From Fomitopsis serialis (taxonomy: Eukaryota > Basidiomycota > Agaricomycetes > Polyporales > Fomitopsidaceae), in NCBI RefSeq assembly GCF_022376445.1, contig NW_025955138.1, forward strand, positions 16,189-80,188: DNA of 64,000 nucleotides, read 5' to 3'. This document shows, one piece after another, positions 20,199-60,298 of this stretch. Numbering within the stretch: the stretch's first letter is position 1; the number at the start of each line of letters is the position of its first letter. The notes under the pieces were generated by a model, which made no database searches, was not told the origin of the DNA, and saw only the letters and a program-made list of their open reading frames with translations. The translations under genes were made by a program, and so were the position numbers.

Positions 20199-21834
20199 TT
20201 AGTGACCCCAATCTTCACCCCCATACATCTCTTGCCTAAACAAACCATCCGCACCATACGGGCCAATACTGCTGCCCAAAAACACCTTGCCTTCATTGCG
20301 GGCTATGCCGATGAGTCCGCCGGTGATCTGCTGCGACACCACGTGCACCATGGACATGAGATTGGCACCGATGTGTCCCCAATCTTTCGATCTCGACTGC
20401 AGAGGGGGATGCTTCAGCCTGCGTTGCGGCTTCAGATGGTTAAGGTAGTGCGAGGTGAGGATAGATTGGATGCGAGCGTTAACGTGATGAATGCGTCAGG
20501 AGGCAGTGTCTTCGGTGAACTTGTTCCTGGCTGAATGAGATCCAGCCAACACTGTTTAAAGAGCCATGGTTACTGCCGTGCAAGCGGGGTATATGACTTA
20601 GCGAACTCACCATGAAATTAGTATCATTCTCCCAATCCTGGAACCCAACTGCATGAGCAGCTCGATCCTTGAACCTGACGAACTCCTCTCGTTGGTACGA
20701 CAGCACACAACATTCTACTCGCATACCGGCATCGAGCTTCAACGCGGGTATGAACACTAGACTGTCATGACCCTCGCCTAGATCTCCTATAAGCACCATC
20801 ATGAAGCCCTCGAGCTTTTTGAGAGAGGACACGGCGGCGGCCATCTATACATTTTTTGTGAGAATAGAATCAGTGGCAAGACAAGATGGCCTACCGTCTT
20901 TGCTTGATACGTGAATTCTGTCCTGCTCTGAGCCACCGTGACAACGGAAACCTCCCTACCAAGTTTGTTCCAGTGTCCATCCACCCTGACCACACCATAT
21001 TTGATGCAAAACTCGACATCGGGGCTCCTGATTATTGTCCTGGGTGCCACGCTCATCGTGACCTTAGACCAGCCCAACCCAGTCACAGACATGTATCTGT
21101 TCACAGTGGACGCAATGGGAAAGGCAAACTCATCATCGAATGTCGGCGCGATAGCATATGCTCGGCGTTCCTGTGGCCAGAAATCAAGACTGTGCTACAT
21201 CAGCGTCAAGCAGCATGAATGAATGTCACTTCACCTGGTACTCACTGTAAGCAATGGAGGAAAGAGATCCAGTGCTTCAGTATGCCGGTGTGCAAGTCCC
21301 ACTGCCAGCTCCTGGCCAACACATCTTGGATCAGCCAGAACTGTTGTTCGGGCATCCCGGTAATAGACTGAACAAAACAGCCCGAGTGAGCAAGAAGTGA
21401 TTGTTTCGTGATAGTATTAACCCACCTTCGTCAAAAACCCATTGCGATTGCTAGCCACCCATTCCTCCTGTAGCTCCCAGATCGCAACGAAGGCCTCGCG
21501 CACAGCCTCCTGCTCATCACCATCTGGCAGGACCCGCCTGAAGAGCTCCCAAAAGTCGTGTGGGATCCCCCGGTTAGTGGAGGCCACACCAACCTTCTGC
21601 ACAGAGCCATAGGGCTCCAGGTCTCGGAGGTTCTGCGTATCCTGACCACGGGGGTCATGTTCATCTAACGAGGTGTCAGCATCGAACGAGGTGTCGGGGG
21701 AATAGATCTCTGAGTCCGGCGCGTAAGAGTGAATGCTGTCGTTTGTGTCAGGGACCAACGGCGCAGACCCGTAGTCCGAGTCATAATCACTGCTGTAGTT
21801 AGTGCGCCAGGGGGGGGTCGTGGTGGCCAGACAT
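20199..21834 (-). pseudogene. Gene A: Plavaka-linked unknown protein, paralogue of gene B
   Basis: Five exons on the minus strand: 21426-21834, 21246-21367, 20895-21189, 20611-20844, 20199-20551. Introns are 50-59 nt with GT-AG ends, and their four positions and phases match gene B (55178-56879). Shared landmarks are an acidic Ser/Asp-rich N-terminus, a WELQEEWVASNRNGFLTK segment before intron 1, DFWPQ at the start of exon 3, then YAIAPTF, SPDVEFCIKYG and VAQSRTEFTYQ, and DWENDTNFMV closing exon 4. Two lesions are visible: a run of eight C near 21810-21817, where one base too many breaks the ATG frame (removing one restores the gene B phase), and a frame slip near 20480-20500 in the last exon. 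It lies head to head with Plavaka copy 1. No known domain is recognised; localisation and role are unknown. Confidence 0.75.
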
Positions 21835-22327
21835 AGTGAGAGTCGGCAGCCCGCGTCGAAGTCAAGAGTGTACCTTCGTCAGCCACTTGTGGGCCATGGG
21901 AACAGCCCGGGGAAAACACGCTACAACTCCAAAACCGGAACATGTACCACCACGGCCTTAGTCTCTTCCGTCAAGGTATTCCGAGTCAGAAATGCAACTT
22001 ACCGATTCAGCCTTGCTATCTTGCGGCATTCTTGCCTCACGACAATCATCCGCGATGTGTTATGTCAAGGGAATAGGGCAGGAGTCGGGCATTGCACTAG
22101 CGCGACATTTGATGTGTCATGCAGGCCAAAAAAGGCAGGTCTGCCGTACCGCTCTGAACCACTGTTGGTATCTCAACTGCAATAACAGATCAGCATGTAC
22201 CCATCTGAGTGCACAAGATGCATGAGTCACCATCTTATGAGTATTAAGGAGGGTCCGCAGGCCATGGGAAAGCCAGTGGGACTGTGCACGGACTCTCATG
22301 GGCCGTCCCTTGGGAGTGTGCAACACA

Positions 22328-22349
22328 TTGCACACACCATAAAAGGCAA
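22328..22349 (+). promoter_or_regulatory. Conserved TATA-type box before Plavaka copy 1
   Basis: A 22-nt block (TTGCACACACC then ATAAAAGGCAA) matches 57183-57204 with two differences. The distance from its end to the transposase ATG is 517 nt here and 521 nt at copy 2. It contains CATAAAAGG, a plausible TATA element for the rightward transposase gene. Confidence 0.6.
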
Positions 22350-22865
22350 GTGCATACTATACAACTCTCCACACCAAATATCACCCTGGCAAACGACAGC
22401 AACATTACTTACTGGCACAGCAATTGATGAGCGTGGCTTGTCAGACAGTCCATCATGAGTCAGACCATAGTCCATCTATGGTCGATGCAAGCAAATTACT
22501 GAATAACTGACACGGTCACTGAACCGGTACTGATGATCCCTAGGATGAAAGACTTACCACACACTTGAGGAACATGCTCATAGATGGTCCAGTGAATGGT
22601 AAGAAGGTAATAGCATGGATGGAATGCGGAAACTAGGGAAGTATGACATGGGCGGGAAAGCAAGGCGAACTTTACCTCATAAGTCAAATGAATGGGGATC
22701 AGACGCCGGTACAAGTGACTTTACGGTGCTCCGAGAGTGGTGAGCATATCGCTACCTATTCCTTTTGAAGGACATAACACCTCTCCACACCACATGTGAG
22801 CATGCTCCAGCGACTACACTCCGGTGCTCTAAATCTTTTTGTATTGACAGCCATATTTCCAGCTC

Positions 22866-25800
22866 ATGGCGAGAGGCAAAGCAAAGTCATGCCATTTGAC
22901 GCATATTCCCCTTGGTAACGCTGAGGACAACACTTGCCCAGCATGCGACAAACCTCTCAAATCCGCTCAAAGGCTCATGGCCCACCTATCATCTGCCCAG
23001 TCTTGCAAGTGGTACAGGAAAGGAAAGAATCCGGAACCAAGGTGCGAAATTCCAGTGCTGGTACACAAGGCTGCTCCTGCTACAGACATGGACGTGGACG
23101 TGGATGTGGAAGACTTCCGCGATGTTCTTGAGACCAGGGACTTGTTCTGGTTCACACTTCCCACCTCCGTCAACCCACCCATTCCAACTGAGGGTGAAGC
23201 CTCGTCATCATCATCCACAGGGTGCCCTGCAGCCCAGCCATTTCCCAATCCACCTGGACCTGCCTTGGACGATGATGACGATACCAGAGTTGAAGAAGAG
23301 GATGAGCTCGCGGGCAAGGCGATACGAATGGAGGAAACAATAGTGGAGACGTGGAGGGCCTACTTCAGAGAGGACAAAGAAGGAGTGGACCTGGACGAAG
23401 AGGACCGAATGGACGTGGACGGCGAAGATGAGGCTCAGAAGCCGCTAGACCCGAACCAAAAATGGAGACCCTTCGCGTCCGAGCTCGACTGGCGAGTAGC
23501 CATGTGGGTTGTTCGAGAGGACGTTGGTCAGAAGTCACTCAATCGGTTTCTGAGCATACCAGGTGTACGTGTCTCTCCATATCACTCTGCTGGACCAGCC
23601 CTAACTCCAAGTGATTGATCTTAGGTAGTTGAAAAGCTCGGTCTTACGTTCAAAGACGTACGGGAGCTCTTCATGAAGATTGATGACATCCCGGAGATGG
23701 CAGCGTGGAAAACATTGTCTCTTGTGTTCCCAGACAGGCCGGATGAGAAGCATCTCATTCAATACCAAGACATCCTTGAAGCAATCAAGGCGCTGCTAGG
23801 CAACCCGTCCTACGCGAAGTACATCGTGTATCGCCCGAAGCGGATTGGTCGAAGACGAAGCACATTTTCACGGAGATGTGGATGGGACTGTGGTGGAATG
23901 CGGTGCAGGTGAGTTGCAATCTGATTATCTGTATTACTACTGACAATTCTGACAAGCGAGTAACAGAAGTTAATTCCCCGGGAGCACGCCGTCGCCCCCG
24001 TCATCATTTCCACCGATAAGACCCAACTCACTCAGTTTGCAGGCAACAAAGCGGCGTACCCGGTCTATCTCACACTTGGCAACATCCCTCGGGCCATCCG
24101 TCGCAAACCAACAGAGCACACCTGCATTCTATTGGGATATCTCCCTGTGACCAAGATCGGAAAGAAGCAGCTTGGCAAGCGGGAATGCAAGGCAAGGGGT
24201 CAGAGACTCTTTCATGCGGCAATGTGTATCATTCTTCAACCTCTCGTGCAAGCAGGCATGGATGGTATTGAGGTCACCGGAGGCGACGGCTCCGTCCGCC
24301 ACGTTCACCCCATCCTGGCTTCTTACGTTGCTGACTACCCCGAGCAGTGTCTGGTGACGTGCTCGAAGTACGGCACCTGTTCGAAGTGCCTGTGCCCCGT
24401 GGACAAGCTGCAAGATGATGCCCTCAAGGAACCGCGCACCCCCGAGGAGACAGAGCACATCATCAGGGAGGCATGAGCTGAGGGGAACACACCCACCGCC
24501 GCCGACACCCTGTGCATGGAACAAGAGGTCAGCGGCGGTGTGAAGACACCGTTCTGGACAGACCTGCCATACACTGACATCCACATGTCCATCACCCCGG
24601 ACGTGTTGCATCAGCTGTACCAGGGGGTGTTCAAACACCTGGTCTCATGGTGCCAGGATCTCCTCAGCCCGGAGGAGCTCAACAACCTTTCCCGTTGTCT
24701 CCCAGGCGCATACGGCATTTGGCACTTTAAGAACGGGATATCCTCTCTTGCCCAGGTGTCAGGCAAGGAAAGGAAGGAAATGGCGTGCATCCTCCTAGCC
24801 TGTCTTGTCGGCAAGATACCGAAGGCTGTCATGCTCACCTTCCAGTCGATTCTTGACTTCATCTACCTCACGCAGTACCCGACTCATGATGACACCACTC
24901 TAGGATATATGACCGACACTCTGAAGACGTACCACAAGAACAAAGATGTCTTGATCAAGCTTGGAATCCGGGAACACTTCAATATCCCTAAGTTTCACTC
25001 GCTGATGCATTACGTGGATTCCATCCACCAGTTTGGCACCACCGACAACTACAACACTGAGATGTTCGAACGTCTCCACATCGACTTCGCCAAAAAGGTG
25101 TGGCGCACCTCAAATCACCAGGACGAGTTCCCCCAAATGATGAAATGGATCACGTGTCGAGAGAAGATGGCTGCATACAAGGCCTTTCAAAAGGAGTGTC
25201 TAGTGGAGGAGGTATCAGAGGACTTGGACGGCAACCCTGAGGACTCAGAAGGGGCAGCTTCTTGTCTAGAAGAGGTTGTGGACATTGGGAACCATGTCAA
25301 GATAGCTAAGTATCCTCCAGCGCCTCAGCAGCATCTAACTTGTATCCAGGAGCGGCACAATGCTCCTGGTTTCTCCACTGCCTTGACTGCCTTCATCAAT
25401 GATATACAGCCATCCGAACTTCGACTGAACCACCACGACCTCTCTCGAACGTGGCTACCTTTTGATTGGCTGGATGTCTACCACAAAGCCCGCTTCAGTC
25501 CTTTTGCACTGTCCGATGGTAAAGAGGAGCAAGATGTCATCAAGTCTATCCCCGGCTCAGCTATCAAGGGAAGGATGGCGCGGTTTGACACCGTCATTGC
25601 CCTTGAGAACGGGGAAGCCAAATCCACAGGGGTTAGAGGTAGGATCAGTGGTTTCATCCTCACATGTCTGCTGCTCACAAGGCTTATTGTAGGTACACGA
25701 GCAGCAAGATTGAAGGTAATATTCAGGCTGCCTGAGAAGCTCCCGGCTCGCCAAGGCGGCAGATGTTCACCCTCATGGTGGCCCAAAGGACCACTGGCTT

Positions 25801-26075
25801 ATGTCCAGTGGTACTCGAGATTTGCAAGTGCCGCTGATCCCATCCACCTCATGTACACTGTAAATCGACCACCACTACGTTCAGATGGCCTTCCGCCTGG
25901 GCAGATCATTCTGCTCTCGCAGATACGTCAGTTGTGTCAGCTTGTGCCCGCTTTCCCCGACGGGTCCCGAGGTACAGTGCCCCCAAATTGGACCTCGGAG
26001 AACGTGCTAGACGAGGCAAACCGACTCTTACTGAATAACTGGGCTGGGATGTACGCTTATCAGACACTGTGGTAG
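22866..26075 (+). pseudogene. Plavaka-type transposase, copy 1
   Basis: Starts at ATG 22866. The N-terminus has a C2H2-like finger (CPACDKPLKSAQRLMAHL), then an acidic linker, WKPF-like and LDWRVAMWVVREDVGQKS motifs. Introns: 23565-23624, 23909-23966, and an in-frame one at 25639-25692. Catalytic core blocks include IISTDKTQLTQFAGNK, YPVYLTLGNIPRAIRRK, VADYPEQCLVTCSKYGTC, PFWTDLPYTDIH, DVLHQLYQGVFKHLVSW, and FGTTDNYNTEMFERLHIDF. The C-terminus ends YAYQTLW at 26075. Damage: a one-base deletion near 23844 (before KTKHIFTEMW) and TGA at 24474-24476. Plavaka enzymes are basidiomycete cut-and-paste transposases related to CACTA/EnSpm (family knowledge recalled, not searched). It is head to head with gene A. 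Confidence 0.85.
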
Positions 26076-26310: not shown

Positions 26311-27147
26311 ATGGTTCGCCCAGATCCGCGAGTGCTCCGGCTGCTCGCTCCTGCTCTTCCAACCTATGCAATTGCTGCTCACTACTCCCAACCATGTCTT
26401 CACGTGGGGCCCGAGCTCAATCACGTCACTGTGGTGTGCCTGCAGAGAAGGCATTTCGGAGTATTGTTTGACTACGTGAGTGAAGTTTGTTCTGTTACAT
26501 TCGGATGAATTGACATGCAATTCAATTATAGTGCGTAAAGAACGACTGCTCCGTCTGTCCAGCCACGTGCAGCGTGGAGCAAGGCACAAGGAAGGATCGG
26601 ATGCAGGCTCTGGCCACAATAGACTTGTTGGATCCTCCAGCAACGCTTGGCGGATGGGTACTCTTGGGGTCGATACTGGAGAGTCACGTCAGGGCTTTTG
26701 TACCGAAGTGTTTCCAGGGGCCGTCAGTGAAAGTAGTTGTGGAGACGTTGGTATTTGCCTTGGTGAGTCACAGTAGCTCTGTTATCTTATTTTGTTGTGC
26801 TCACGCTGTGCCGTCTGATTCAGGACGCACATCCTCCTCTGTCCCTCCCTCTCATATGGGAGATACACAGTGAGGAGATCGAAATCTTGCTCAATCAGCC
26901 CCTCACCATTCAGCTCTTCCGTGGGCTAAATGTGTGGAAGAGCCATCGAGGTCCGCTTGATGCGACTTTTGATTTCTTCCATGTCGACACCAAGAAGTTT
27001 ATCCCCACGTGTTTGCGCCCCCAAGTCTCCCTCCACCTCACCTTACCTCTGCGGCACACGCCTGTATTCAAAGACACAGCAGTATCCATTACCGTGCATG
27101 CCGCCGAATATGCTCGCAGCATGAAACATCAGGAAAAACCTAGGTAA
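26311..27147 (+). CDS. Gene F: intact unknown protein between two Plavaka copies (239 aa)
   Basis: Three exons, 26311-26475, 26532-26762 and 26824-27147, splice in frame through GTGAGT...TATAG and GTGAGT...TTCAG introns of 56 and 61 nt. The total is 720 nt, or 239 residues plus stop. Near residue 56 there is a Cys cluster CVKNDCSVCPATC (spacing 4, 2, 3), possibly metal-binding or disulfide. The C-terminal half is beta-rich and hydrophobic with no signal peptide. An in-frame upstream extension is open but unneeded. It starts 236 nt after the stop of Plavaka 1, same strand, so it may be a second gene of that element or a host gene trapped between copies. I recognise no family. The intact frame, unlike its neighbours, suggests recent selection or recent arrival. 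Confidence 0.65.
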
Positions 27148-27398
27148 CTTAAGCGGTCTTTAAAAGAACCAGTCGTACTCCCAGAGGCTTTACGCCCTTA
27201 TATATGTACCAAAGTGCATTTAAGGTGCTCTAGAGCGCGTAAGGTGTACTTTCCATTGCTTAAGACACATTAGTCTGGACGTTTTCACTTAAGCCAGCAA
27301 CGCAAAAGTCAGTTGAGGTCACACAAGCTTCGGAATTTTCAAGGCCGCATTTCAATTCACTTTGAGGTCTTAAACACAAGATCTATATGTATGACTAG

Positions 27399-30190
27399 CT
27401 ACCACAGAGTCTGGTATGCATAGGAACTGGCCCAGTTGTTAAGTAGAAACTTCGAAGCAACATCTAGTACAGTATGAGTGTTCCAGTCAGTATTGCTCAG
27501 CTTTATCACCTACAGAACCTGGAAATGTAGGTATCAACTGGCAAGACTGACGTATAGTACTGAGGGGAATAATATCTGCAATGGGCTTACCATCCGAACA
27601 CAATGGTGATTTATGAACTGTGTACATCATATGCGTAGGGTCAGGAGTGGTTGGGAGCTTTGCGAACCACTCTACATAAGCCAGTGGTCCTTGTTCTGCC
27701 CATGACGCAGGGACGTTCAGGGGAACACGAGTGCGCGGGTCTTTAATGTGATTCGGAAGCCTGAAGATGACTTTAACACGTCCGATTCTCGTTCCTGTTA
27801 GCAGACATCAATAGAAATCTTGGAGAAAGCTGTAGTAAGGCGCACCTTGTAATCCTGTAGCCTCGGCATCATCTTCTCTCAATACTACGACTGTATCGAA
27901 CCGCGCCGGTTGTTCTCCGAAAGAAGGTCGCGCCCTGACTGCATCAGTCTCTTCCTTGCTGTCTGTCAAGGGTTCCGGCGAGAACTTGAACCCGTGGAAC
28001 ACGTCTACCCGATCGAAGGGCATATGAGATACGGCGGTGAGAAGCTGAGTGGGAGTGAGACGTCAATTGTTTTTGAGAATATAGATGTACTGTGCGAGCG
28101 TATTCTTGAAACCAGGTGCGTTGTGTCTGTCTTCAATGCGATCGACGGACTGCATCGCTACCGTTGGATGCTTCGGCAGTTTGATGCTCGTCTTGCCAGT
28201 GTGTTCAACAGGGGGCTTGTCTCTGACTCTTCTGCATCTTCTTCTTCATTGTCATCCCTCTGCAATTGTCTTCGCATTGTTGAGCTGAAAATTACCATCT
28301 TTTCCTGGCGTGCAAGCCAGATCACCATTTGCGGTCGCGCGTTTCGAGGCCCTCCAGCCATTCTTCGCGTAATCGATATGAAGGTGTTCGAATGCCTCGG
28401 TATTGTAGTTGTCTGTTGTACCTAGGAGGCGAATTGATTCAATTGATTCAACGTATTGTAGGAGAGAGTGAAACTTACCTAGGAGGCGAATTGATTCAAC
28501 GTAATGTAGGAGAGAGTGAAACTTGGGGATATTAAGGTGTTCTCGTACGCCACAATTGACGAGAACTTCCTTGTTTTTGTGAAAGACCTTGAGCGCATCT
28601 TCCATGTATTGAAGGGTTGTATCGTCGTGCGTCGGGTATTGCGCCAGGTAGATGAAGTCGAGTATGGCGTGAAATGCGACAATCGCATTCTTGGGGATCT
28701 TTCCTACCAGGCACCCGAGGAGAATTCGCGTCATGTACTTCCGTTCAGTGCCAGAGACCTGAGAAAGCACCGAAATTCCGTTTTTGAAATGGCGAGTGCC
28801 AAAGGCAGGCGGCAGGCATCGAATGCGACGATCGAGCTCCTGTGCATCAATGAGTTCAGTACACCACTGGATGATGTGCTTGAAAACGCCTTGGTATAGT
28901 TGGTGTAGAACGTCTGGTGTGATACAGGCATGGATATCCGTGTACGGTAGGTCTCGCCAGAAAGGACGCACGACGTATCCGCAGACGTTCAGCTCGTTGC
29001 AAGCACGAGCGTACGCGGGCGAATCCTTCTTTCCATTGCTGTTCTCGGTCGCGAGACGCAGAACGTCCAGGGTCCATAACAAGGTTCGTGACGTGCCAGG
29101 AGTGGGAGATTCAAGCTTGTCTTCTGGGAGCTGACACTTTGGACAAGTACCGTACTTCGAGCATGTAACAAGGCATTGCTCTGGATAGTCTGCCACGTAC
29201 GCGGCTAGAATGGGGTGCACCCTGCGCACCGCACCGTCCCCTCCGGTCACGTCGATACCGTGCCTTCCGGCCTCGACAAGGGGCTCCAAGATGACACGTA
29301 CGGACGTGTGGAACAATTGCTGCGCGAGGGCGCGTTGCTTGCGTTTCGTAATGCCGTCCGAATCGATCTTGTCAACAGAGAGGTATCCTATGAGGATACA
29401 TGCATGTTCAGACGGCTTGCGTCGCAGAGCTCGTGGTAGGTTTCCTAGCGTCATGTAAACAGGATAGGCTGACTTTCCCCCAGAGAACTGCGTCAGTTGC
29501 GTTTTGTCTGTCGCGATAATGACGGGCGCAACAGCAGCTCCGTCAGGCAAGAGACTCTGAGAACAACATTAATACAATCGCACTCATATACGTTCAAAGT
29601 AACACAAGACAACACTCACCTGCACAGCGTGCCACCAGCGTCCGGTCCACATCTCATGGTAGATGCGACTGGTTCGCGATGCGTCACTGAAGATGCGACG
29701 CGGACAATAGATGATCTGACCTGCATGCGCCGGGTTGCCCAACAAAGTCCTAATGGCTTTGATGATGTCTCGAAACTGGACTAGGTGGCGCTCGTTTGGT
29801 CGGTCCTTGAAGCTCAGCCAATGCTCCTTCCATTCGGCACGCTCTGGAAGCGAATCCACTCGCTGAAGCAGGGAGCGTGAGTTGTGATAGGACAGACCTA
29901 GTCTTTCCTGAAACTAGGGTACGTTGGCCGCACATAGTCGCAATAGTAGTTAGTACTACACACAATCCAACCAGTCTGTAACGCAAGTCAACTCACCCCA
30001 GGAATCTCCAAGGCTCGGTCTACAGAGCCTTGGCTCAGGCCCTCCTGAACAGCCCATGACGCGAATCTCCAGTCCATCTCGGACTGGAACGGCGCCCACG
30101 GGTTTGCGGTTTCTTCAATATCTTCACTGGGGTCTTTGTCTGTGCAATGAATTCTCACTGTTCAGTAACTTACGAAACTGTAGTACTGTG
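27399..30190 (-). pseudogene. Plavaka-type transposase, copy 3 (5' end missing)
   Basis: Minus-strand relative of copies 1 and 2. From the Gypsy LTR boundary it begins in the FQSEMDWRFASWAVQEGLSQ region (about 30150-30000), so the zinc finger is lost. The core (29550-28252) keeps IIATDKTQLTQFSGGK, VADYPEQCLVTCSKYGTCPKC, RPFWRDLPYTDIH, DVLHQLYQGVFKHIIQW and GTTDNYNTEAFEHLHIDY. A short in-frame tandem duplication repeats the KFHSLL(H/Q)YVESI block at 28430-28530. After about 28300 the frame slips. C-terminal pieces follow (28023-27808 and about 27720-27540), ending in NNWASSYAYQTLW at 27399. The 5' end at about 30190 meets the Gypsy LTR. Confidence 0.82.
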
Positions 30191-30196
30191 TGAAGC

Positions 30197-30812: not shown

Positions 30813-30883
30813 GTGCCTCCCAACTGGATCGAACCCCTGAGATCCATAGGCGATGGCAAGTGGCCGAGATCTGAGATCTGAAC

Positions 30884-37129: not shown

Positions 37130-37160
37130 GTCGAGATCCCAAGAGTCAGTTCGAATATAC

Positions 37161-41699: not shown

Positions 41700-42248
41700 G
41701 TGTCTGTTGCTGTGCCAGCTGACCTCTTCGAGTACGAAGCTCTGGTGTCTGTTGAAGACGAAGAGGCTGTCTCTCTGAACTGGTCCTCACACTCTCGGGC
41801 TCCGTCTGATCCCACTGCTTTCTCGGTGGCTCCAGTGCCTGTGGCTGCTCGCCGTGTCTCTACTGCTGGGACTGAGCCTTTCGTATTCGACTCGGGCGCC
41901 TCCACGCACTTGTCTCCTCATAAGGCCGACTTCCACGACCTTCGTCCGATTGCTCCGCCGCTCGAAGTCTGGCACCGCCGCCTGGGCCACGTCAACCATC
42001 GTACCATTCACAACATGGCTCGTCTCGGGTCAGTCACAGGTATGCCCATCATCCTCTCCCCACCAGCAAAATGTGAACATTGCATTCTCGGCAAACAGAT
42101 GAGAAGTGCGGTTCCGAAGGTGCGGGTGGGGGAAAAGGCAACTAGGGTCCTGGGTACAGTGTTCGTGGACGTGCAGGGGCAGCGGACGTGCGTTCCGCCT
42201 CTGGGAACTTCATCAGGAAAAAACCGCCCGCAGGGCAGGAGCTCTTAG
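41700..42248 (+). pseudogene. Copia 2 protease fused to pre-integrase by deletion
   Basis: FVFDSGASTHLSP is the aspartic protease active site. Only about 25 residues later comes LEVWHRRLGHVNHRTIHNMA ... CEHCILGKQM, the HHCC zinc-binding pre-integrase domain, which normally lies well over 100 residues further on. The protease body has therefore been deleted. The frame decays after GKQMRSAVPKVRVGEKATRV, and no integrase core or reverse transcriptase follows. Confidence 0.75.
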
Positions 42249-46058: not shown

Positions 46059-48905
46059 CTACCAAAAATGTGCATTGCCGGCCCAGCCGTTACGGCCTTC
46101 CTTTGTCCACCTGTCTATCTCTTTGTCCGTGTGCAGAACGATGGAGGCGCGACACCCAGTAAAGTGGAGGTTAAAATGAGTAACGCGCAATGAAGGAAAT
46201 GCGACGAAATCGCCATTTCGAAGAGGAAGGGCCAGGCCGGGCTCATACAGACACAGCTCGCCTCCCTCAAACTCTCCCACCGCCAAGACCACACAGAGTG
46301 ATTTATCCTGCTTGTCTCTGTGAGCCAGAGTGGCCACATTCAGGTTGACAACGAGTGACAGGAAGGGATGGACCAGAGAACTGGCATTCCCCGGTAATAC
46401 CTCCGCGTCCATGCGTAGGTCGTCATATTCCAAGCAAAGCGAGTCCTTGAGCTGTATATATATTCAGCCACTCAGTTCAGTGGGTAGATAGAGAGACGTA
46501 CCTGCTCAGCCATCCATTCAAACAATTTTTGGAAGACGGATTGCAGATTATTGTAGATGTCTTTGTATTTACCGGTGTCTTGCGACGGGTAGGGAAGCAT
46601 TTGACCGTAGTTCGTTCGAGTGTTGTCGTCTTTCTCAATGAGTATGGGGTGTGCGTCGACCGGAACATCGTGTCCCTGTGATAGCCCATTCTCAGCACGA
46701 AGTGACATACCAACAGTAGAACGTTAAACGGATTCACTGACCCTTGTCCTGTGCCGGTTATACCAGGCGAAATGAAGTGCCGCGAAGCTGAAACCTCTTC
46801 CCTCCGATGAGGAGCACGTTTCTTTGAGATTCTCCGCCTGGTCTTCAAAACAAGCGAGCAAGTTTACAGTGAGCATCTCGCGGATCTCTTGCGGCATGTT
46901 GTTGAACACGCATGCAACGAGAGATCCTCTACTATCCTCGATTTGAATGGGACCCCTTTCAAAGGGTGAGATAGACGCAGTTGATAGTTGAGGAACTACT
47001 CACGATGCCAGGTCAGGCTTGATGGCAACATATTCCTTGACTTTCCGTCCACTGGGGCCTTCTGGAGCAGCCGGTGACAGCTACAGACCAGTTGCTACAG
47101 GTGAGAAGGAGCGTACACTGTTGTATGATCAAACGAAGGGAACATACCAGGGCCTGCAATGCCGTGGGCGTTTCTGGTTTCAGCGCTGCTGCAGCCAGCA
47201 AACGCTGAGTCTCCGTCCAAGTGAAGGCTTCTTCAGGTAGATTGGGCACCGGGTACGCACGATGCACATCGAGGCTGAGATCGAAGTCCTTCATTACAAC
47301 GCATATGCCTGGTATGTTGTGATTCGTCATCTCAACATCGGACTGTTCAGCGAGGATCTCGTCCTCATCTTCGTACACATCGGACAAGGGAGAGGGGGAT
47401 CAATCGCGCCCTCAATGTCGCCATTTCGACGGAAGAGATTTTGACTGGCCCGGGTGAGCGGAACCGCATCGCTGGCCGGATCGGGATTGGGAAGCAGGCA
47501 AGCTGCCCATATTTCCAGGTTTCTATCCACGGAAGTAAAGTTACTAGCACACCACGTATAATTAGCAGAGCACAAAGTTCAAAAGGTCTGTGGACGCTCA
47601 CTTGAGTATTAGGGAGCCGAACAATTTATCGGAGTGCTCAAGATTGGAGCAATCAAGCGCGTCCAATGCCACGCCAAGTTCTACCAGCATGGGAGGAGAG
47701 TACAGTGCGTCAAATTGCAGAGGTAGCTGCGCTCGCACGCGGTCTATAGCCGGGATGATACGCTGAATGACTATACTACCTGCCACAGTATCTGCAGACT
47801 AGTGTGAGGTGAGCTGCGCCGGAGTGAGTTAGTACTTACTTGGGTCGGGATCACGTAGAACGTTGGCGACCGTCCAAGCAAAGTCACCAACGGATTGTAT
47901 GACGTCTTTACGCAGATCGGCTAGAATAACCAGCAGGACAGCATAGATAGATCCTGCCAGAGAGGGTGCATAAGCCATATTGCTTGTTTACTGCAACATT
48001 AAGGACATATACGGGCAACCTACCCCCTGTTGCGATCACCAAGAATCTGCTTCCAATCTCGTTCCAGTGGCAGAATGTTCGCTGGCTTGGCGAGGAAGGG
48101 CGACCGCTGATGTGCTTCTCATACACCTGGCATACGCTCAGATTGCTTGCACGTCTTATGCTATCCAAGCAACTTCAGATTAATAAACGCGATGACCAAA
48201 TATGTTTCACTGACTTAGAGGTTTTGCAGACCAACTGCATGTAATGCACAATGACGAGGAAACTGACACATTGGTCAGCGGTTGTAATTCGCGTACATCT
48301 TTGAACAATCAATTCAAGAGTGTTGTCCAGGAATCCGGTTCCATCGTCTCCTTGTTCTAGCAGCGCCCGCACGGATGATAGCTGAGAGCGGCTGCGGTCT
48401 GAGGCTAAGTCGATGGATGCAGAGAGACGTGCAAAGAACACTCTGATGGCTGGCGTTGACTGGTTGAACGGGTCTCGACGCCTCACCCATTTCTTAACTG
48501 AGGAGCCGCTCTTGCAGTGCGGGGGAGGTAGCACTCCTCTGTCTGCTCTTCTCCCAGGTTTGGGGGGTTGCTTGTCAAGCTTTGCGGTCTGAGAGACCCG
48601 GTGATGCGTCGACTTCTTGGAGTTCTGGCAGCAATTTGAACGACGCAGACTGGGTTCTTCATGGCCATCTGAGTTCGGATTGCCTGCAATATGTTGTCAG
48701 ACTACTACGTACAGCACCTGAGTCAATTGCACTCACCGTTGGGTATCTCCTCCCCATCGCCCTTCAAGGCATCGCTGATCAATTGAAGTCTATCCCGCAC
48801 AGCAGGCAGAGCAGAGTGAAAGTCTTCGTACTTCGTCAAGAGCAATTGAAGCGCCTGACTCTCTTCTTCGGAGAGCTTCAGAATGTGTTGTAGTGTGGGA
48901 GTCAT
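46059..48905 (-). CDS. TET/JBP-like Fe(II)/2-oxoglutarate dioxygenase
   Basis: ATG 48905 to stop 46059. Well-supported exons: 48737-48905, 47840-47953, 47602-47791, 47148-47522, 47004-47080, 46742-46956, 46502-46675, 46059-46451; those between 48233 and 48683 and near 48024-48166 have one uncertain edge. The C-terminal double-stranded beta-helix shows AHRDKQD (Fe-binding His and Asp), GEFEGGELCLYEPG, RNGDFVAFPS, THFNLHF (second Fe His) and CRASIVLH (2-oxoglutarate Arg). Before it is FAALHFAWYNRH and TNYGQMLPYPS, as in fungal TET/JBP proteins linked to transposons. The family oxidises 5-methylcytosine. The N-terminal region is helical. Frame breaks are possible near 47390 and 46921, so this may be a recent pseudogene. 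The catalytic exon is fully open. Confidence 0.78.
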
Positions 48906-49016: not shown

Positions 49017-50214
49017 CTATGGCCATCCAAACCACTGTCTGAGTTGAGCTTGAGCGAGAGACTGAGCAAAGTACACCATGCTTTTCGACCAGTCCATGGA
49101 TAGCCACTGCAGGCCGTCAGCCCCCAGCCTGTTGTACAATTGGCTGTCTTCGAACCACCCTCGATCGTCCGTATCAGATTCATCGTCGTTGAAGGCCGCG
49201 AAATCGTTGACCTCGCCCAGTAGGACGTTGATTCGACGTCTGTCAGAGGTGCTGAGGTCGTCTTGTAGGTCATCGAGGTCGTCAAGGTTGTCGAGGTCGT
49301 CGATGGAGTTGAGGAGGCTCAACTCCTGGGACATGATGGTTATGTTGTACCTAGCCGCGGCCAGGTAACCTTTGAAGACATTGTAGAAAAACGCCCTGGC
49401 CTTCCCAGAGCATTTTTCGAAGTCGAGGCTTTCGCCGTTTGGCGTGATGGCCTGCTGAACGTCAGTTCAGCTCAGTCTAGATGGAGAGGGGGCACTCACC
49501 ATGTGCCCAAAGTAAAGCTTGAGTTCCCTCGCTGTCCACTTCTCGCATCCAGGGTATGGAGGGCGTTGTCGTAGCGCGTTGTACGACACCGATGGGATGA
49601 AGATGGCGTACCCGCTTAGAGCTCCTACGATCGCATGGCGATTGAAACTGATGTGGGGCGTGGTATGCTCCCTGTTGACCTTCCTCAACGCCTGAACCTC
49701 CCGTGCCCTATGCAGATGCCATGTGGCGGCGCTGCTGCCAGTCCCTTCAGTCCCCATGAAGCCCCAGAGGCCCCAGGAAGAGGGGTCCCTTTTGTCCTGG
49801 TTGCCTGCCTGCTCCTTCCACTGCCTCAGCACCTCAGGCTCAGGCTTCTTCATTTGGCCCTCCGATGCAGCGAAGAAGATGGTCCCAAGAACGGCATGGG
49901 CGCCGGCGTCGCATTCCTCTACCAGCTGCTCAACAATCAGTGGGCAAGGTGGCTCAGTTCCGATGGCGGCTCACCTTGTTGACTCCATGGGCCATGCTCT
50001 CCGAGGAGTGAACCTCCACATAGAGGCCCTTGGCGGGGTGTAGGCCCACCATGAGTCTGACCACACAGTCTGGCCGGAAACCGCCAACAGAGAGCTCATC
50101 GTTGGTGGTGGTGGGCTCTGTCATGCCCGCCAGAGATGCGCAGTCCTGGGAGCACAGATCAATGAATCTGTGAGCGAGGTGCTGGACACCGATGTGAACA
50201 TCGCCTACCGCCAT
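49017..50214 (-). CDS. Gene E: intact unknown protein upstream of the TET/JBP-like gene (366 aa)
   Basis: Three exons, 49975-50214, 49500-49925 and 49017-49451 (240, 426 and 435 nt, all phase 0), joined by 48-49 nt GT-AG introns. ATG is at 50214 and TAG at 49017. Features: an N-terminal segment with FRPDCVVRLMVGLHPAKGLY; a Trp-rich middle (SSWGLWGFMG); SFNRHAIVGALSGYAIFIPS; KWTARELKLYFGHM; then a strongly acidic Asp/Leu stretch (NSIDDLDNLDDLDDLQDD). The stop lies 111 nt before the TET-like ATG on the same strand. I recognise no domain. An undamaged frame among decayed elements suggests function. A role as partner of the oxygenase is inference from position only. Confidence 0.7.
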
Positions 50215-50639
50215 CGCGGGTGTGAAGGAGAGGCGGACAGGCCATCAGGAAAATCCAGATTCCGCAATGTGTAATAAATTGTGTCAAATTGTTGCTAACA
50301 CGTCTCATGAGTACTCACCGAACTCCGCGAGCTAATTCTGTGATAATAACATCTACTGGATACAGTATTAGTACATGTATGATCCTATTAGACACAGTGA
50401 CGAGGTTGTTCCCTAATTGTTGCTAAAGTGGTACATCATACAACGTGCACGATGCTTGTTACGAGTAGTTCAACAATGATTCTATTGCTGTGTGGTATGA
50501 CTGAATACAAATGCTGTATGCTACACTAAGCAACGCAACAGTCAATGGTCGACAAGGCCATCTTCAACATAATGACGACAACTCCTATGTGTTAGCTATT
50601 CTACGAATCCCCATAGCATCTCACACCCAAGCCATTACT
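50215..50639. other. Upstream region of gene E; no gene seen
   Basis: AT-rich spacer before gene E. No ORF or clear promoter motif is recognised. Confidence 0.4.
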
Positions 50640-53600
50640 CGTGACGGTCACCATACAGATCACGCACGAGTGCGGGTCATGCAAACCACGAGTGGGGTTA
50701 ATGGGCGCCAGGTTCGTACACATGGGGGATGCACAAATGAGTATGCGGGCGCGCGGGCGGTAGCGGATATTCCGGCGCGTGGTCAGGTCAATACGCGGGT
50801 GGGTAGGGTAGGCAAGCATGCAGGCGGGCGTGCAAATATGTGGGCAGGTGGATAGGCAAGTGCATGAGTAGGCCAGAGAATGGACGGGCAAGCCAGGGAA
50901 GTAAGTGGAGTGATACTACGATGAGCAAGTTGTGGATGAGTAGATGCGTAGACAGACGCACGACTGGACAGGCAGCAGGCGGGCGGGCGAGTGAGTGGCG
51001 CACTGTGGCTGCTGGCGGATGGGGTGCGGGGACGTGAGATGTTGGCAGGGAGGGCGACAGGAGACCTGTGCAATGTGGCCGTGTGTGGTCCAAACTCTGA
51101 TGAGGCGGCGGACGGTGTGAGACGGGGATGCAGTCGCGCATCGTGGCTGCTGGTGGGCAGGGCGCGGGGACGTGAGACTGCGACGGGACGACGAACGGAG
51201 TGAGAAGAGACGCCAGGTAGAAGCCAGGACTCGGGAGCGAGTAGACGGTCGAAGATGGCGTGAGGGAGGTAGGGAGAGTGTCGAGGGCGGAGGGTGGCGA
51301 GCGGTCGCCATCCATTTTCGGGATGGCGAGACGGACCGGATTAGGCAGTGTTGTATCGGATATGACAGGAGGCGGGCGCGGACGAGTAGATTTGGACGTG
51401 AGGAGTGTGGCGGGGACCTGACGGGGGGTAAGATGGTTGTGCAGACAGAGTAGAACTATGATCAGGAGGTCAACAAGTGCCGGGTACTAGTCGAACGAAG
51501 AGGCAGGCGGGAGGGCAAACAATGCGGCAGGCAAAAAGGCATCCATATGAGTGAGGAAGGGGCAGGCGAGTAGGTAGATAGGCAGAGCGAGCGAGTGGGT
51601 AAATGCCGGCGAACGAGTGAGCAGACCATCAAAAGGCTGCGGATAACCAGACGAGCAGGCACACTGGCCGGTGGCGAGTAGGCGCGATGAATTGACTGTT
51701 CGTCGATATGCCGGGTCGCACGGGCGCACGGGCAGCACTAGGGAACTGTGACAAGTAGGGCGGGGAGTATTAGAGTCCGAGTCAGGAGTCAACAAAGGCG
51801 TACGTACCTCTGACTTACAAGCTGTTGTGCGCACCCTTGCTATGGTCATCCCTCTCCTCGTATTCGTCATTCAATCTGCCGCCCCTCCTCGTCCTTCGTC
51901 TTGCTGTCCCTTCCATCCCACGCTCGTCATGTTAGATGCGCATCGCGCGAGCCCGAGTTCGCCTGGCCAAGTTGCATGCCCCAGAGACACGCAGGTTCGA
52001 GAAGAGGCGGTCGAGCGCGCAGTAGATCTGCTGAGATAGACCACAAGTCTCTTGAGGTGCGGTTGGGCAGGCGTCGTGAGGCGTCGTGGCTGGTCGTAAG
52101 TAGCTCAGAACTTACGCCGGCGCTTGCTGCTAGCGCGAACCACATATGCGCGGGAAAGGCCGGAACCGGCGCTTGGGACTTTGTGCTCTCACGGCGCGAC
52201 GACGTTTGCGCCCATTCTCTCATCCTAACCTTCGCCACAGCATTCAAAAGCTGAAGCTGAAGATTTAACGGCCCCGAGACGACACGCCGCAATGAGCGCA
52301 GACAAAGGAAGCGGAGGACGAGGGGTTGGAGTGGTGAACAAAAGGAATGCGGAGGCACGAAAAATACTTGAAGGTGAGTCTTCAGCGCACTCACTGATGA
52401 TTCTTGTTCCCAACTCTTCGCTGTGTGAGTAGGTGCATCAATGAGCAACGAGCTCGCGGTGCCTACTTGCCTGCTCGTCTGCGCATCCCGCGTATTTGTG
52501 CTTCCCATCCGTTGGCCCTCTCACGCCCGCCCGTTCATGCCTGCCTGCCCTAACTAGCGTTTTTACTTGTCTGTCCTCGCCGACTGTCTCGCCTGCTGCC
52601 CTCGCCTTCATGCTTGTACCCTCCCTCCCGCTCTCGCCCGATTACTCATCCTTGCCTGCTCGCCGTTGCTCTCACACGCCTGCTCGCTCGCCCACTCGGT
52701 TGCCCGCTCTCATCTGCTCAGGCTCGCCTTCTCGCCAACTCGCTCGTCCACTTCCTTGCCTGTCCGCCGCCGTCTTGCCCACTGGCATACTCCCCTGCTT
52801 GTTCACTGATCTGCCGGCTCATCTGCCAGCTTGCCAGTCCGCCCGCACTCGTTGCCCACCCTCGCCTCGCCTACTACCCGCCCTTCTTCGCCATCTTGCT
52901 ATCTCACACATCCACCTGTTCTTAACTGCTTGTCATCACCCCCATACTAGGTAAACTGTAGCACGCCGTTCTTCTCGTGCCCGCGCCCTCGACTTCTCGC
53001 GCCCACCCTCGGTTCAGAGCCTGCCTCTTGCCTGTACACTCGCTCGCGGCTTCTCGACTGCCCGCCTGTTCTTGTCCACCCACCCGTACTCACGCACTGT
53101 TTCTTAGCCGAATGGAAGCTGCTCCGGGAAGTGCTCGGGAAGGATGTGCTCTGCGTCGTGTTCGCATCCTATTGGTGCACGAGGATGATCTCCTCGGGCC
53201 TGGGAGCACAAAACGACGCCTGCATCGTGACCGTGCTACCAGGACGATCACTGATCAATGACCATACTGCACACCGCAGCCGACGAACACACCACGGGCC
53301 TGGGCGCAGCGACGACCGGACGGCCGGCGTGGAGTGCGGGGACGGGCGAGAGCGAGGCGAGGGCGAGGGCGAGGGCGCGATGAGGGCGAGGGTGAGGGTC
53401 TACAGGCGAGTGCAGGCATACGCGCGCGGGCTCACTCACGGCAGGTGCAGGACACGTCAATGTGCTGCGCGACGCGTACGACGACCGCGAGCACGCATAC
53501 AAAGCCGACAAACAGTCAGGAGCCATCGGGCGGACGGGTGGACGGGCGGGCGTGCGAGCAGAATGGCAAGCGAGCGGGACGGCGAGCGAGCGAGTGAGTT

Positions 53601-54600
53601 GGCGGGTGGACGAGCGTTAGCAACAACGGGCGGCGACTGGCGCGGACCAACAACACAAGCACGTCAATCACGAGCGTGCTGGGCGAATGCCCAGCATGCA
53701 GACGTGGCCGGCGAGCGCACAGGCAGGCGGGCGGGCCAGTGGGAACACGAGCGCACAGGCAGACGAGCGCACAGGCAGGCGAGCGGGACAGCGGGCAGGC
53801 AAGTGGGATAGCGAGCGCGCGGACGGGCGGACGAGCGACCGAACAGACGAGCGACCGAACAGACGAGCGACCGAACGGACGAGCGGGAAAGCGAACGAGT
53901 AGGCGGCCAGGCAGGCGGATGGGACGTTGGGCAGGGAAGTAGGCAAGCGGGAACAGAGGAGGGCGGATGCCCTGCACAGTCATGGCCGATAGGCGGGCGG
54001 GCGGTCACACAACAGGCAACGACGCACACAGCAACCGCGCGCAGAACACGGTTTGACGAACGTACGCGCAGGTGAGTCAGCACGGCACGCATATCGACCA
54101 CGAGCGCGCAGGGTGAATGCCCAGCACACAGTCATGGCCGATCAGCGGCGAGCGAAGGGTGGGTGCAGACACCAACGAGCAAACGGGAGGGCTCGCAGGC
54201 GGCATGTGCAGACGGGACGCAGGACGGGAAGACGAGAAGACGGGTGGGCGAAAGGCTCGCTGGCACGCGCGAGTCGATGGTGGGTACGCACGGGCGAGGA
54301 AGATGGTGGGGAGCACAGCGAGGAGTCAGGACAACGGGTGCCGCCCGCTTTCCTGCGCAATCGCTCGCTCGCCCACCCGCCCGCCTACGCGAGCCTCTCC
54401 GCCCTTCTGCCCACTCCCTCTGCTTGCCCACCCGTACATGGACCCGCAGACCCGCGAACCTGCACATGACCCGTACCCGTGTAGCGGGTACGGGTACGGG
54501 TAAGCCCCCGGCAATTCACAGCCTGCGACGGGTCTGTACCCGGGGCGGGTATGGGTACACATCAGCACACCCGCGGGTAGAGTCCTACCACTGGCACGGC
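50640..54600. repeat. GC-rich low-complexity region with switching strand skew
   Basis: Degenerate GCGGGCGAGCGAG-like sequence. The plus strand is G-rich at 50700-51700, C-rich at 52470-53110 and 54360-54470, and G-rich again at 53280-54340. Tandem units include a 16-mer ACGAGCGACCGAACAG three times (53831-53878) and a block with ATGCCCAGCA...GTCATGGCCGAT near 53690, 53967 and 54117. Long ORFs in it read as Ala/Arg/Gly or Pro/Leu/Ser on either strand and are composition artefacts. The end (54470-54580) is rich in ACCCGT/ACGGGT words, like the subterminal repeats of hAT elements. Confidence 0.6.
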
Positions 54601-55177
54601 GGGGCTGGGCACGCATATACCTACGCTCGTTTGATACTGAACCTACTTACCATCACTATATTGGCACCCAATCAATTAGTATGATCCTACATGGTGTGAT
54701 ACGATGTCACTACAGCCGCTACGCCGTGATTGGTGGGAAGTATTGTGTGTATAGTATGAAATAGCATGCAGATTTGTGAGATAACATAGCCTCACCGAGA
54801 CCACATCCTCCATGAAGTAGTGAGAATCCGTTCTCCATGAGTGTTGTTTAGATCTAATTAGGAAGGGGGCAACGTAAAGTTATCTAATCTCTAATTCAGC
54901 TAATTAGGTCACATTTTGCGCGATTATGCCTCATTATGCATTATGAGTTCTCATTCGCGAATCCAGATTTTCCTGATGGCCAATCCGCCCAGTGCTGCAC
55001 GCGCTGCACGCAGTGCAAGTCCGCATGTCCTTCTCTTCTCACAGAGAAGGGACTTCGGACTTAACGCGGGACTCAGCGTCCCACTCGGGCGCTCTTGGGG
55101 TGGCATTCTCTGGCCAGAGGCATAAAGCAGACACGGGTATCATATCATCGTTGAAGTAGTTCCAGTGCATATACATA
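54601..55177. other. Non-coding spacer before gene B
   Basis: AT-rich and without a supported gene. It ends at the stop codon of gene B. Confidence 0.4.
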
Positions 55178-57182: not shown

Positions 57183-57204
57183 TTGCAAACACCATATAAG
57201 GCAA
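57183..57204 (+). promoter_or_regulatory. Conserved TATA-type box before Plavaka copy 2
   Basis: TTGCAAACACC then ATATAAGGCAA; 20 of 22 positions match 22328-22349. It lies 521 nt before the transposase ATG. Downstream, an ATG at 57237 opens a short frame ending at a GTGAGT donor after MSSSDSMYGW, so the leader may be spliced or carry a small upstream exon. Confidence 0.6.
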
Positions 57205-57724
57205 TTCCTACGCACCACTCAAGCATTCGGCCAACATGTCCTCTTCAGACAGCATGTACGGTTGGTGAGTGAGCACGGTTGAGAATGCAGATGACCGCAC
57301 CTGATGTACCCTCAATGAGCTTGCTGTGAGATAGGTGGCAACCGTTAGAAGGCAGGGAGGACAGCAGCTGTACTTACTACCGCGCTCCCTGTCATGACCA
57401 TCCTGTAGTGTGCAGTTACCACGGCAATTGGAAGGCGTATTCTATTTGCTTTGATCTAGTCAGAGCCTTCAGCTGCTACCATTCTATGGCAAGGATTGCG
57501 CAGAGACGAGGAGGTCAGTGTCCAGGCAGGCGTCGTGTCGTGGGGAATTGAAGGGATCTTAGGCGATATGATGCGCTCACGCTCTGATTGGAAGCGCTCT
57601 GTAGCTCGTCGGGGACGCATCATCAACTTCGAACTGGTTTGAACTTTAGGTGAATTGTTTTTTTGTGTGTAGCCAACGGAACCTCACCAGTCCATCAGTC
57701 CAACTTGAAAGTGGTGTTCGCATC

Positions 57725-60230
57725 ATGAGGTCAAGACGAGCACCCTTCGTTCCTCTCAGTGACCCTGATGAACGGACGTGTCCAGCCTGTGACCGAGAAT
57801 TTGATACGTCACAGGGCTTAATGGCTCACCTATCGACAGCGAAGTCTTGCCTGTGGTATAGGAAGGGCAAGAATAAGGACCTCTGGTCCAATCTTCCGAA
57901 CGTTGAGGAGCGAATGGTTGAGGAACAGGCTCTGTCCAGTGCCGAAGACATGGAGGTCGACCCGCAGGAGAATATCTGGGACGCGTTGGAGAACAGAGAC
58001 CTGTTCAGGTTTGTTCTACCTGACGCCGGAACACAACCCGCAACACAGGATGAGAACCAGGCTTCGTCCTCTACGCACCCAGCTGTTCTGCCCGATCCGC
58101 GAGTCGTTCAAGCTCCAGCATTGGACGACGATGAGGACGACAGGGTTGAAGAAGAGGACTCTCTTGCGGGAAAGGTCATCCGAATGGACGCCACCATTGT
58201 ACAGACATGGAAAGCATTCTTCACGGACGATCTAGAAGACGACACATCGGACACGGACCAAATGGAGGTGGACAGCGAGGATGGCAGGCCGAGAGGGAGG
58301 GATAGGAGCGAGGTGTGGAAGCCTTTTGCCTCAGAGCTGGACTGGAGGGTGGCCATGTGGGTTGTTCGTGAGGACGTAGGGCAGAAGTCTATTAACAGAT
58401 TTCTCTCAATACCAGGAGTAAGTCTCCGCTGCGTCATATCTGTGCACTTCTATTCTGAAAGGCTGTCTATAGGTTGTAGAAAAGCTGGGACTGACCTTCA
58501 AGGATGTACGGGAGCTTTTGCTGAAGGTTGACGATATCCCGGACAGGGCTGCGTGGAAGACAGCTTCGTTGAGCTTTCCCGATCGACCAGACGAGATTCA
58601 CCTTGTACGCTACCGTGACATCTTGCAGGCCATCAAGGCCCTCCTCGGTAATCCTACTTACGCCAAACATATCGTATACCGTCCAAGACAAGTGTTCTCG
58701 GATCGTTCAAAGCAGAAGAGAGTCTACACGGAGATGTGGACCGGCCTGTGGTGGAACTCAGTGCAGGCACGTACAAAGTGCGGTCAATTAGGAAGGGCTC
58801 CTGACTTACATGTTGTGTTGCAGCAACTACTACCTGAGGGCGCGGCGGTGGCCCCTGTGATTATCTCTACAGACAAGACCCAGCTTACGCAGTTCTCAGG
58901 CAACAAGACCGCATATCCAGTTTATCTCACCCTTGGCAACATTCCCTGTTCTATCCGCCGCAAACCATCTCAACACGCGTGTATCCTGCTTGGGTCCCTC
59001 CCGGTCTCCAAGATAGCAGGAGAGAAGATGACGAAGAGAGAACGAAAGGCACGGTCCCAGAGGCTCTTCCACGAGGCTATGAGAATCATTCTCAAGCCTC
59101 TGATTCAAGCTGGCGTGGAGGGGATTGAAGCCACGGGAGGAGACGGCGCTGTCCGGCGGGTCCATCCCATCCTCGCAGCATATGTTGCCGACTACCCAGA
59201 GCAATGCCTTGTGGCGTGCTCCAAGTACGGGACGTGTCCCAAATGCCAGTGTCCTGCTGACAAATTGGAGGAACCTGTCTCGGGTGAGCCTCGTACTCCT
59301 CACATGACGGAGAGCATCATCCGGGATGCCTCCAGGGTGGGGCTCAGCGACGCCGCCTGCGAGGCCCTGTGTATGCAACAGGACGTCTCTGGCGCCGTGA
59401 AGAAGCCGTTTTGGGCGGACTTGCCCTACACAGACATTCACCTCTCCATCACGCCGGATGTTCTACATCAGCTCTACCAAGGCGTATTCAAGCATCTGGT
59501 TTCCTGGTGCCAGGATCTTCTCGGTCCAAATGAACTGGACAGGCGAATGCGCTCGATGCCACCGGCATTCAGTGTTCGTCATTTCAAGCACGGCATTTCG
59601 TCACTGTCGCAGATAACCGGCACGGAAAGGAAGGGTATGGCTCGTATCCTACTTGGTTGTCTCATCGGCAAAATCCCGAAGCGGCTCCTCATCTGCTTCC
59701 GATCTCTACTCGACTTCATTTACCTCGCCCAGTACCCCACTCACGATAACGACACTCTAGGGTACATGAGCGACGCACTCAAAACATTTCATGGGCACAA
59801 GGACGTCCTGGTAGAACTGGGGATTCGGGAGCATCTGAACATCCCCAAATTCCACTCCCTACTCCACTATGTCGACTCCATCCGCCTCTTCGGCACCACA
59901 GACAACTACAATACCGAGATGTTCGAGTGTCTTCATATTGATTTTGCCAAGGACGCCTGGCGGGCCTCGAACCACCGCGACGAATTTCCGCAAATGACGA
60001 GGTGGATATCCAGACGCAAGAAGATGATGCTCTACGAGGTCTTTCAAAATGAGCGTCAGGCCACCGGGGAGCTGGAGAACAATGAAGAGGATAGGGAAAG
60101 CCACATCGACGAGTTGGAAGAGCGTGAAGCCCGTCCAGAAGAGGTCTCGGATGCCGACCGTAACATCCGAATCGCGAAGTACGTGCCCGCGCCTCAGCAG
60201 CATCTGTTGAGCAGACTTGGTCACACGTAG
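57725..60230 (+). CDS. Plavaka-type transposase, copy 2 (best preserved, C-terminus truncated)
   Basis: ATG 57725. Introns: 58418-58472 (GTAAGT...CTATAG) and 58767-58823, the latter with an unusual GC donor (GCACGT...TTGCAG), 57 nt and in frame. Otherwise the frame is open to 60230. Domains: C2H2-like finger near residue 18 (CPACDREFDTSQGLMAHL); acidic linker; LDWRVAMWVVREDVGQKS; MWTGLWWNSVQ; then the core with IISTDKTQLTQFSGNK, VADYPEQCLVACSKYGTC, PFWADLPYTDIH, DVLHQLYQGVFKHLVSW and FGTTDNYNTEMFECLHIDF. Copy 1 continues about 200 residues beyond PAPQQHL, whereas copy 2 ends 9 residues later (SRLGHT), so the C-terminal region is lost. It stands head to head with gene B. No nonsense or frameshift is seen before the truncation. 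Confidence 0.87.
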
Positions 60231-60298
60231 TGGACCGCACTCTAACTTACCTGCTTGAAGGTGTTGCTGTTAAGCTTGAGGCACACAAGTAGTTCCGG
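60231..60298. other. Junction between Plavaka 2 and Copia 3
   Basis: Not alignable to the end of Plavaka copy 1 and not recognisable as LTR. It may be debris from an older insertion that truncated the transposase. Confidence 0.4.

What the first reader, a model, noticed from the sequence alone, without database searches (positions are those of the whole stretch)
20199..26075. Candidate two-gene Plavaka transposon: gene A facing transposase copy 1
Gene A (minus) and Plavaka 1 (plus) are head to head. Gene B (55178-56879, minus) and Plavaka 2 (57725-60230, plus) repeat the arrangement 35 kb away. A and B share all four intron positions and phases and ordered motifs (DFWP, IAPTF, SPDV/APDV, FMV at an exon end). 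The spacers share a 22-nt box at 517 and 521 nt before the transposase ATG. Independent host genes would not keep this. I infer an undescribed Plavaka partner protein, perhaps a TnpA-like DNA binder as in CACTA elements.
Basis: partly seen in the sequence, partly recalled or inferred. Interest (0 to 1): 0.88.

Follow-up and report, generated by a model that had tools for sequence, protein, structure and literature searches.

The report
Multi-gene Plavaka transposon in bracket fungus
The two odd genes sitting head to head with transposase genes are parts of a large jumping element that also carries a demethylase-like gene and a row of look-alike genes, so a little-studied fungal transposon family is more elaborate than a simple two-gene unit.

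Summary
Genes A and B belong to one family without a Pfam match. Element ends were found: CATCAGGAAAAAC terminal repeats, 179 hits against 0 for the reversed word. Eleven units of 9-21 kb that I picked are bracketed by them; 8 of 11 have a 2-bp target duplication (10 of 110 mis-paired); 6 of 11 enclose B, 4 of those 6 with the duplication. The best copy (C124, 21.3 kb): TIR, five gene-C paralogues, Plavaka, B, D, TET/JBP-like gene, TIR. The window and C124 copies stop matching at the terminus, with unlike flanks. The termini fit PlavakaB (Kojima 2025). A TnpA role is not supported: no repeated subterminal word seen, no known domain, and Plavaka units without detectable B exist. B is less constrained than the transposase. 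Its function is unproven; I favour a regulator or anti-silencing factor. New variant of a known kind.

The parts
20199..21834 (-). gene A, B-family partner of element 1 (frameshifted near the start)
22334..22355 (.). conserved box (ACACCATA[AT]AAGGCAA core) in the A/transposase spacer
22866..26075 (+). Plavaka transposase 1, with one stop and one frame break in the modelled core
26311..27126 (+). gene C copy of element 1, cut by a foreign terminus at 27127 (start codon by eye)
27127..27139 (+). CATCAGGAAAAAC terminus of a third Plavaka element (transposase 3 on minus, 27487-29913)
42211..42224 (+). left terminus (CATCAGGAAAAAAC) of element 2, inside a copia-like reading frame
46062..48705 (-). 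E/TET region of element 2: N-terminal E part and Tet_JBP-like dioxygenase domain (below the Pfam cut-off)
49020..50217 (-). gene D of element 2
50240..54977 (.). 4.74-kb later insertion with CATCAGGAAAATC inverted ends, between D and B, absent from C124
55178..56879 (-). gene B, partner protein of element 2 (498 codons modelled, four introns)
57189..57210 (.). conserved box in the B/transposase spacer
57725..60207 (+). Plavaka transposase 2, interrupted at 60208; the C array and right terminus are not in the window

Best explanation
Genes A and B are one family of element-encoded proteins carried by a group of large PlavakaB-type DNA transposons. The fullest anatomy (C124) is TIR 5'-CATCAGGAAAAAC, five gene-C paralogues reading towards that TIR, Plavaka transposase, then back to back with it gene B, gene D and a TET/JBP-like gene reading towards the other TIR; 2-bp target duplications are seen in most units checked. 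Shown by sequence: membership, order, termini, duplications, constraint on B between lineages. Inferred: the transposase cuts and pastes at these TIRs; B and the transposase are expressed from one shared divergent promoter. Inferred with less certainty (about 0.4): B is a fast-evolving regulator or anti-silencing factor that works beside the TET-like enzyme, not a catalytic subunit.
For: 27 of 39 B/A clusters have a divergent Plavaka match within 5 kb, 0 of 39 another arrangement within 5 kb, chance 0.9% per gene; C55 and C62 are added by the N-terminus search, total 29 of 39. Reciprocal: 28 of 31 Plavaka genes with that N-terminus have B within 3 kb, 0 of 4 weaker ones. TIR 92+87 hits, control 0+0. 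TSD 8 of 11, control 10 of 110. B lies inside 6 of 11 units. C124 and window copies stop matching at the terminus with unlike flanks. C beyond Plavaka in 22 of 27 pairs; TET beyond B on its strand in 16 of 28. dN/dS of B 0.22-0.38 between lineages. B and Plavaka distances correlate, r 0.72, 1 of 720 permutations as high. A B-family protein in Rhodofomes roseus. Plavaka genes with B lie on one side of a branch, support 73/90, 16 rows.
Against: 10 of 39 clusters have no Plavaka found nearby (candidate lists were capped: 123 of 323 scored, 122 of 266; DNA held beside C212 and C441 showed none). 5 of 11 units lack detectable B, and 2 of the 6 with B (C62, C76) lack a 2-bp duplication. C76 and C129 show no C, D or TET match. 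Many loci are near-copies, so counts are not independent. The C124 right flank recurs at C62 and C401 with unlike left flanks, so no empty site was shown and its CA duplication may be chance; without C124 and C62 the count is 7 of 9. Function: no domain, fold or experiment.
Confidence: 0.82

Rival explanations
1. B is a TnpA-like DNA-binding cofactor needed by the transposase to bring the two ends together.
For: Tight pairing with one transposase group, shared spacer box, correlated divergence.
Against: No exact 8-10-base word occurs more than three times in the first 700 or last 900 bp of C124 (one element, no shuffled control); no domain match; four units with the same 13-bp TIR and a Plavaka match have no detectable B; B is less constrained than the transposase (dN/dS about 0.3 vs 0.04-0.06).
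Confidence: 0.3
2. B (and D, C) are anti-silencing or host-interface proteins that protect the element, alongside the TET/JBP-like enzyme.
For: Linkage to a TET-like gene, weak constraint on B and C1 relative to the transposase, diverged tandem C paralogues without stops in my models.
Against: No evidence on methylation; the TET match in the window is below the Pfam cut-off (22.8 vs 34.9 bits).
Confidence: 0.4
3. B, D and C are passengers (captured genes) with no role in the element's life.
For: Some related units lack them; recent copies show dN/dS 0.8-0.9.
Against: Constraint between lineages, conserved order in diverged copies, B and C homologues in a second species.
Confidence: 0.2
4. The two window loci are one host segmental duplication.
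For: Two similar arrangements 35 kb apart.
Against: A and B are about 27-29% identical, and each lies in a kind of unit found many times in the genome; the B copy and C124 differ right outside the terminus.
Confidence: 0.01

Closest known systems
PlavakaB DNA transposons (Kojima 2025, PMC12730594; abstract, passages and sections 18 and 34 seen)
   Same: Plavaka transposase, CATCA..TGATG termini, 2- or 3-bp duplications, some with a TET/JBP gene
   Different: The parts I saw name no B, D or tandem C genes for Plavaka and report TET+ Plavaka only from Agaricus bisporus and Gymnopus confluens; here it is a Polyporales species and a 9-21 kb unit with many genes. Its supplementary sequences could not be read.
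CACTA/EnSpm elements with TnpD plus TnpA (recalled, from no call)
   Same: DDE transposase of the wider CMC group plus a second protein
   Different: other termini, a divergent second gene, no subterminal repeat array seen, no similarity to TnpA tested
VANDAL elements with the anti-silencing protein VANC (recalled, from no call)
   Same: a DNA transposon with an extra protein that may oppose methylation
   Different: unrelated transposase by recall; no homology tested

Membership tests
Plavaka transposon (PF18759) | Plavaka transposase domain over the curated cut-off | tested here: met
   all three window copies over the cut-off
PlavakaB | termini 5'-CATCA..TGATG-3' | tested here: met
PlavakaB | 2- or 3-bp target duplication | tested here: met
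   2 bp in 8 of 11 units, 10 of 110 in the mis-paired control; 4 of the 6 units with B. Not testable for the two window copies, which lack one or both ends
PlavakaB | transposase inside Kojima's PlavakaB clade | not testable with these tools
   reference sequences are in a supplement that could not be read
TET+ transposon | TET/JBP dioxygenase gene between the termini | tested here: inconclusive
   a TET/E match lies inside 7 of 11 units (76 of 268 candidates scored); domain match in the window E 6e-5 but below the cut-off
CACTA/EnSpm with TnpA | CACTA termini | tested here: not met
CACTA/EnSpm with TnpA | subterminal repeats bound by the second protein | tested here: inconclusive
   exact words only, one element (C124); none seen more than three times

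The most novel reading that the evidence does not exclude
This is an arms-race DNA transposon that carries its own escape kit: a TET-like DNA demethylase, fast-evolving partner proteins B and D, and a tandem, diversified gene-C array whose units each deal with a different host factor, all packed between PlavakaB ends.
Probability: 0.3. Interest if true: 0.82.

Novelty: new variant of a known kind. Interest (0 to 1): 0.62.

Why it matters
Plavaka elements are common in some mushroom-forming fungi but their internal genes are hardly described, perhaps because gene callers mask repeats: profile searches of 5.8 billion proteins gave 1 and then 6 B-family entries, and 7 for gene C, although this genome alone holds 39 B clusters. 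Defined ends, duplications and a gene order make excision and methylation tests possible, and give proteins without a Pfam match over the cut-off (B, C, D and the E part) to place. A tandem array of diverged paralogues beside a transposase is, to my knowledge, unusual, and raises the question why it is kept.

Tried and rejected
An inverted-repeat search in the flanks held on both sides of the pairs gave only short matches, 11-17 bases and not shared between families, because the element is far larger. Similarity of D to B, suggested by eye (PD...E...K-like motif), was not supported by profile comparison, probability 0.1%; B vs C likewise. Four D proteins have no Pfam match at E up to 10. AlphaFold models of gene C (pLDDT 47) and the B core (pLDDT 50) are too poor; Foldseek of the B core gave no match at E 0.001 or better; the C model was not searched. 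An empty-site test at C124 failed: the third place with its right flank (C401) does not carry its left flank. My first gene models were rough: B lacked exon 2, and the A query held about 40 residues of a wrong-frame stretch and joined residues across its frameshift. Module exchange of B between elements is possible (in C645 vs C158 B has dS about 2 against 0.73 for Plavaka and 0.63 for C1), but low identity makes that dS unsafe. When I entered coordinates by hand into the counting scripts I left out rows that repeat a locus already entered: some rows, a few of the 146 rows, and part of the rows.
Full report
WHAT IS THERE. The window is G000:C88:16189-80188 of a 66.2-Mb fungal genome. Returned Fomitopsis serialis proteins lie on contigs of 38,590, 182,296 and 80,312 bp, the lengths of C300, C779 and C87 here, so I infer that species. 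Both head-to-head pairs are present as described. No Pfam family matches A or B. Nine of ten B-family models have four introns, C188 three.

ASSOCIATION. Searches with B and A gave 39 clusters. 27 of 39 have a Plavaka match on the other strand, head to head, within 5 kb, and none has one within 5 kb in another arrangement; 0.9% is expected per gene (only 123 of 323 Plavaka candidates were scored). A search with the transposase N-terminus (122 of 266 candidates scored, list cut) added partners for C55 and C62, so 29 of 39. The ten without are C196, C199, C2, C212, C335, a weak second C374 match, C441, C550, C805 and C95. In the other direction, 28 of the 31 Plavaka genes whose N-terminus matches at E below 1e-10 have B within 3 kb; C72 has it at about 3.5 kb; C458 and one C18 copy lack it; four weaker matches lack it. 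Two further B queries hit no contig that was not already in the set. Near-copies such as C121/C779, C645/C617, C158/C327, C72/C794, C76/C129, C18/C777 and C88/C124/C300 mean that these are not all independent events.

THE ELEMENT IS LARGER. Copies only 70-80% alike in DNA keep more genes in the same order. Gene D lies beyond B on its strand (19 matches; 8 of 28 pairs within 3 kb, with a query from one lineage). A gene with a Tet_JBP-like C-terminal domain follows (16 of 28 pairs on the expected strand within 12 kb, C158 and C374 with a match on the opposite strand). Beyond the transposase lies gene C, in tandem rows: in C124 five paralogues about 1.4 kb apart. None of the five automatic models holds a stop; C1 and C4 hold one frame break each; they have two to five introns, and two phase-0 introns recur. 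Gene C is found beyond Plavaka in 22 of 27 pairs, with one to five units counted; C129, C300, C76, C777 and the window's element 2 show none.

ENDS. The right edge of gene C in the window, 27126, meets CATCAGGAAAAAC; the same word stands at the far end of the C124 array and, with one more A, at window 42211. Genome-wide it occurs 92 times forward and 87 reverse against 0 and 0 for the reversed word (100 of 179 places listed). From that list I picked by eye eleven inward-facing pairs 9-21 kb apart that enclose matches: C124, C62, C76, C129, C146, C72, C223, C22, C29, C63, C158. Two-base duplications flank 8 of 11, against 10 of 110 mis-paired flanks; C62 and C76 have none and C29 one base. C124 and C62 share a right flank that also occurs at C401, with three different left flanks; leaving both out gives 7 of 9. 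B lies inside six of the 11 (C124, C62, C76, C129, C146, C72), four of these with the duplication; a Plavaka match lies inside 10, a TET/E match inside 7. C158 28248-37472 is a short unit with C and TET only. C223, C22, C29 and C63 have no detectable B. Of 39 C-side termini (CATCAGGAAAAACAC, control 0), 21 have gene C within 6 kb reading towards the end; the other 18 have no gene-C match within 6 kb on either strand.

NOT A DUPLICATION. The C124 and window copies are 95-98% alike from window 60208 leftwards, except for the 4.74-kb insertion at 50240-54977, to the terminus at 42211, beyond which the flanks are unlike. The window copy sits in a copia-like reading frame.

SELECTION AND HISTORY. 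Between lineages B has dN/dS of about 0.22-0.38, between recent copies 0.8-0.9, as expected for a gene selected only when the element moves (dS is often near saturation). The transposase is at 0.04-0.06 where it can be estimated, C1 at 0.25 in one pair. Elements with transposases 92% alike can have B only 39% alike (C645 and C158). Distances of B and transposase correlate (r 0.72; 1 of 720 permutations as high; six loci, two nearly identical). In a 16-row tree the transposases with B are on one side of a branch, support 73/90.

FUNCTION. Nothing here shows a biochemical role. B begins with an acidic serine/aspartate-rich stretch, then a body with invariant positions in DFW, APT, AQ and EF.Y. 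The spacer box is in 10 of 10 held loci and once in C124, which fits a shared promoter better than repeated transposase sites; this is inference. A TnpA role is weakened by the absence of a repeated subterminal word in C124 and by related units without B. I rate a regulator or anti-silencing role at about 0.4 and a transposition cofactor at about 0.3.

LITERATURE. 'Plavaka' is in 11 papers of the library (listing). I saw the abstract, passages and sections 18 and 34 of PMC12730594 and passages of PMC8290104. The original Plavaka paper (Iyer 2014, recalled) is not held. The listings of searches show no title or abstract start about a B-like partner or a tandem gene array in Plavaka, but apart from the two papers named I did not read them, and supplements and subscription papers were not seen, so prior description cannot be excluded.

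Noticed in passing
window 50240-54977: 4.74-kb insertion with CATCAGGAAAATC / GATTTTCCTGATG inverted ends and no clear gene, splitting D from B: a likely non-autonomous relative of the host element; the C124 copy shows the site without it, with at most a 1-base duplication by eye.
   Followed up: partly
window 27127-30196 and beyond 37776: A third Plavaka element (transposase on minus) whose terminus cuts gene C of element 1 and which seems split by a gypsy-type element with 99.7% identical repeats at 30196-30813 and 37160-37776.
   Followed up: partly
window 43988-45903: Basic, low-complexity open frames between the TET-like gene and the left terminus, also in C124; possibly another element gene.
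   Followed up: no
G000:C158:28248-37472: A 9.2-kb TIR-bracketed unit with gene C and TET matches but no Plavaka or B match, with a TC duplication: apparently an internally deleted element.
   Followed up: no
G000 C345 and C62 copies: The C345 B model holds many frame breaks and a C62 match of gene D holds 11 TGA codons, which could reflect mutation by a silencing process.
   Followed up: no
window 60208-64000: A copia-like element lies in transposase 2; the contig ends with the window (C88 is 80,188 bp), so the C array of element 2 is not assembled here.
   Followed up: no
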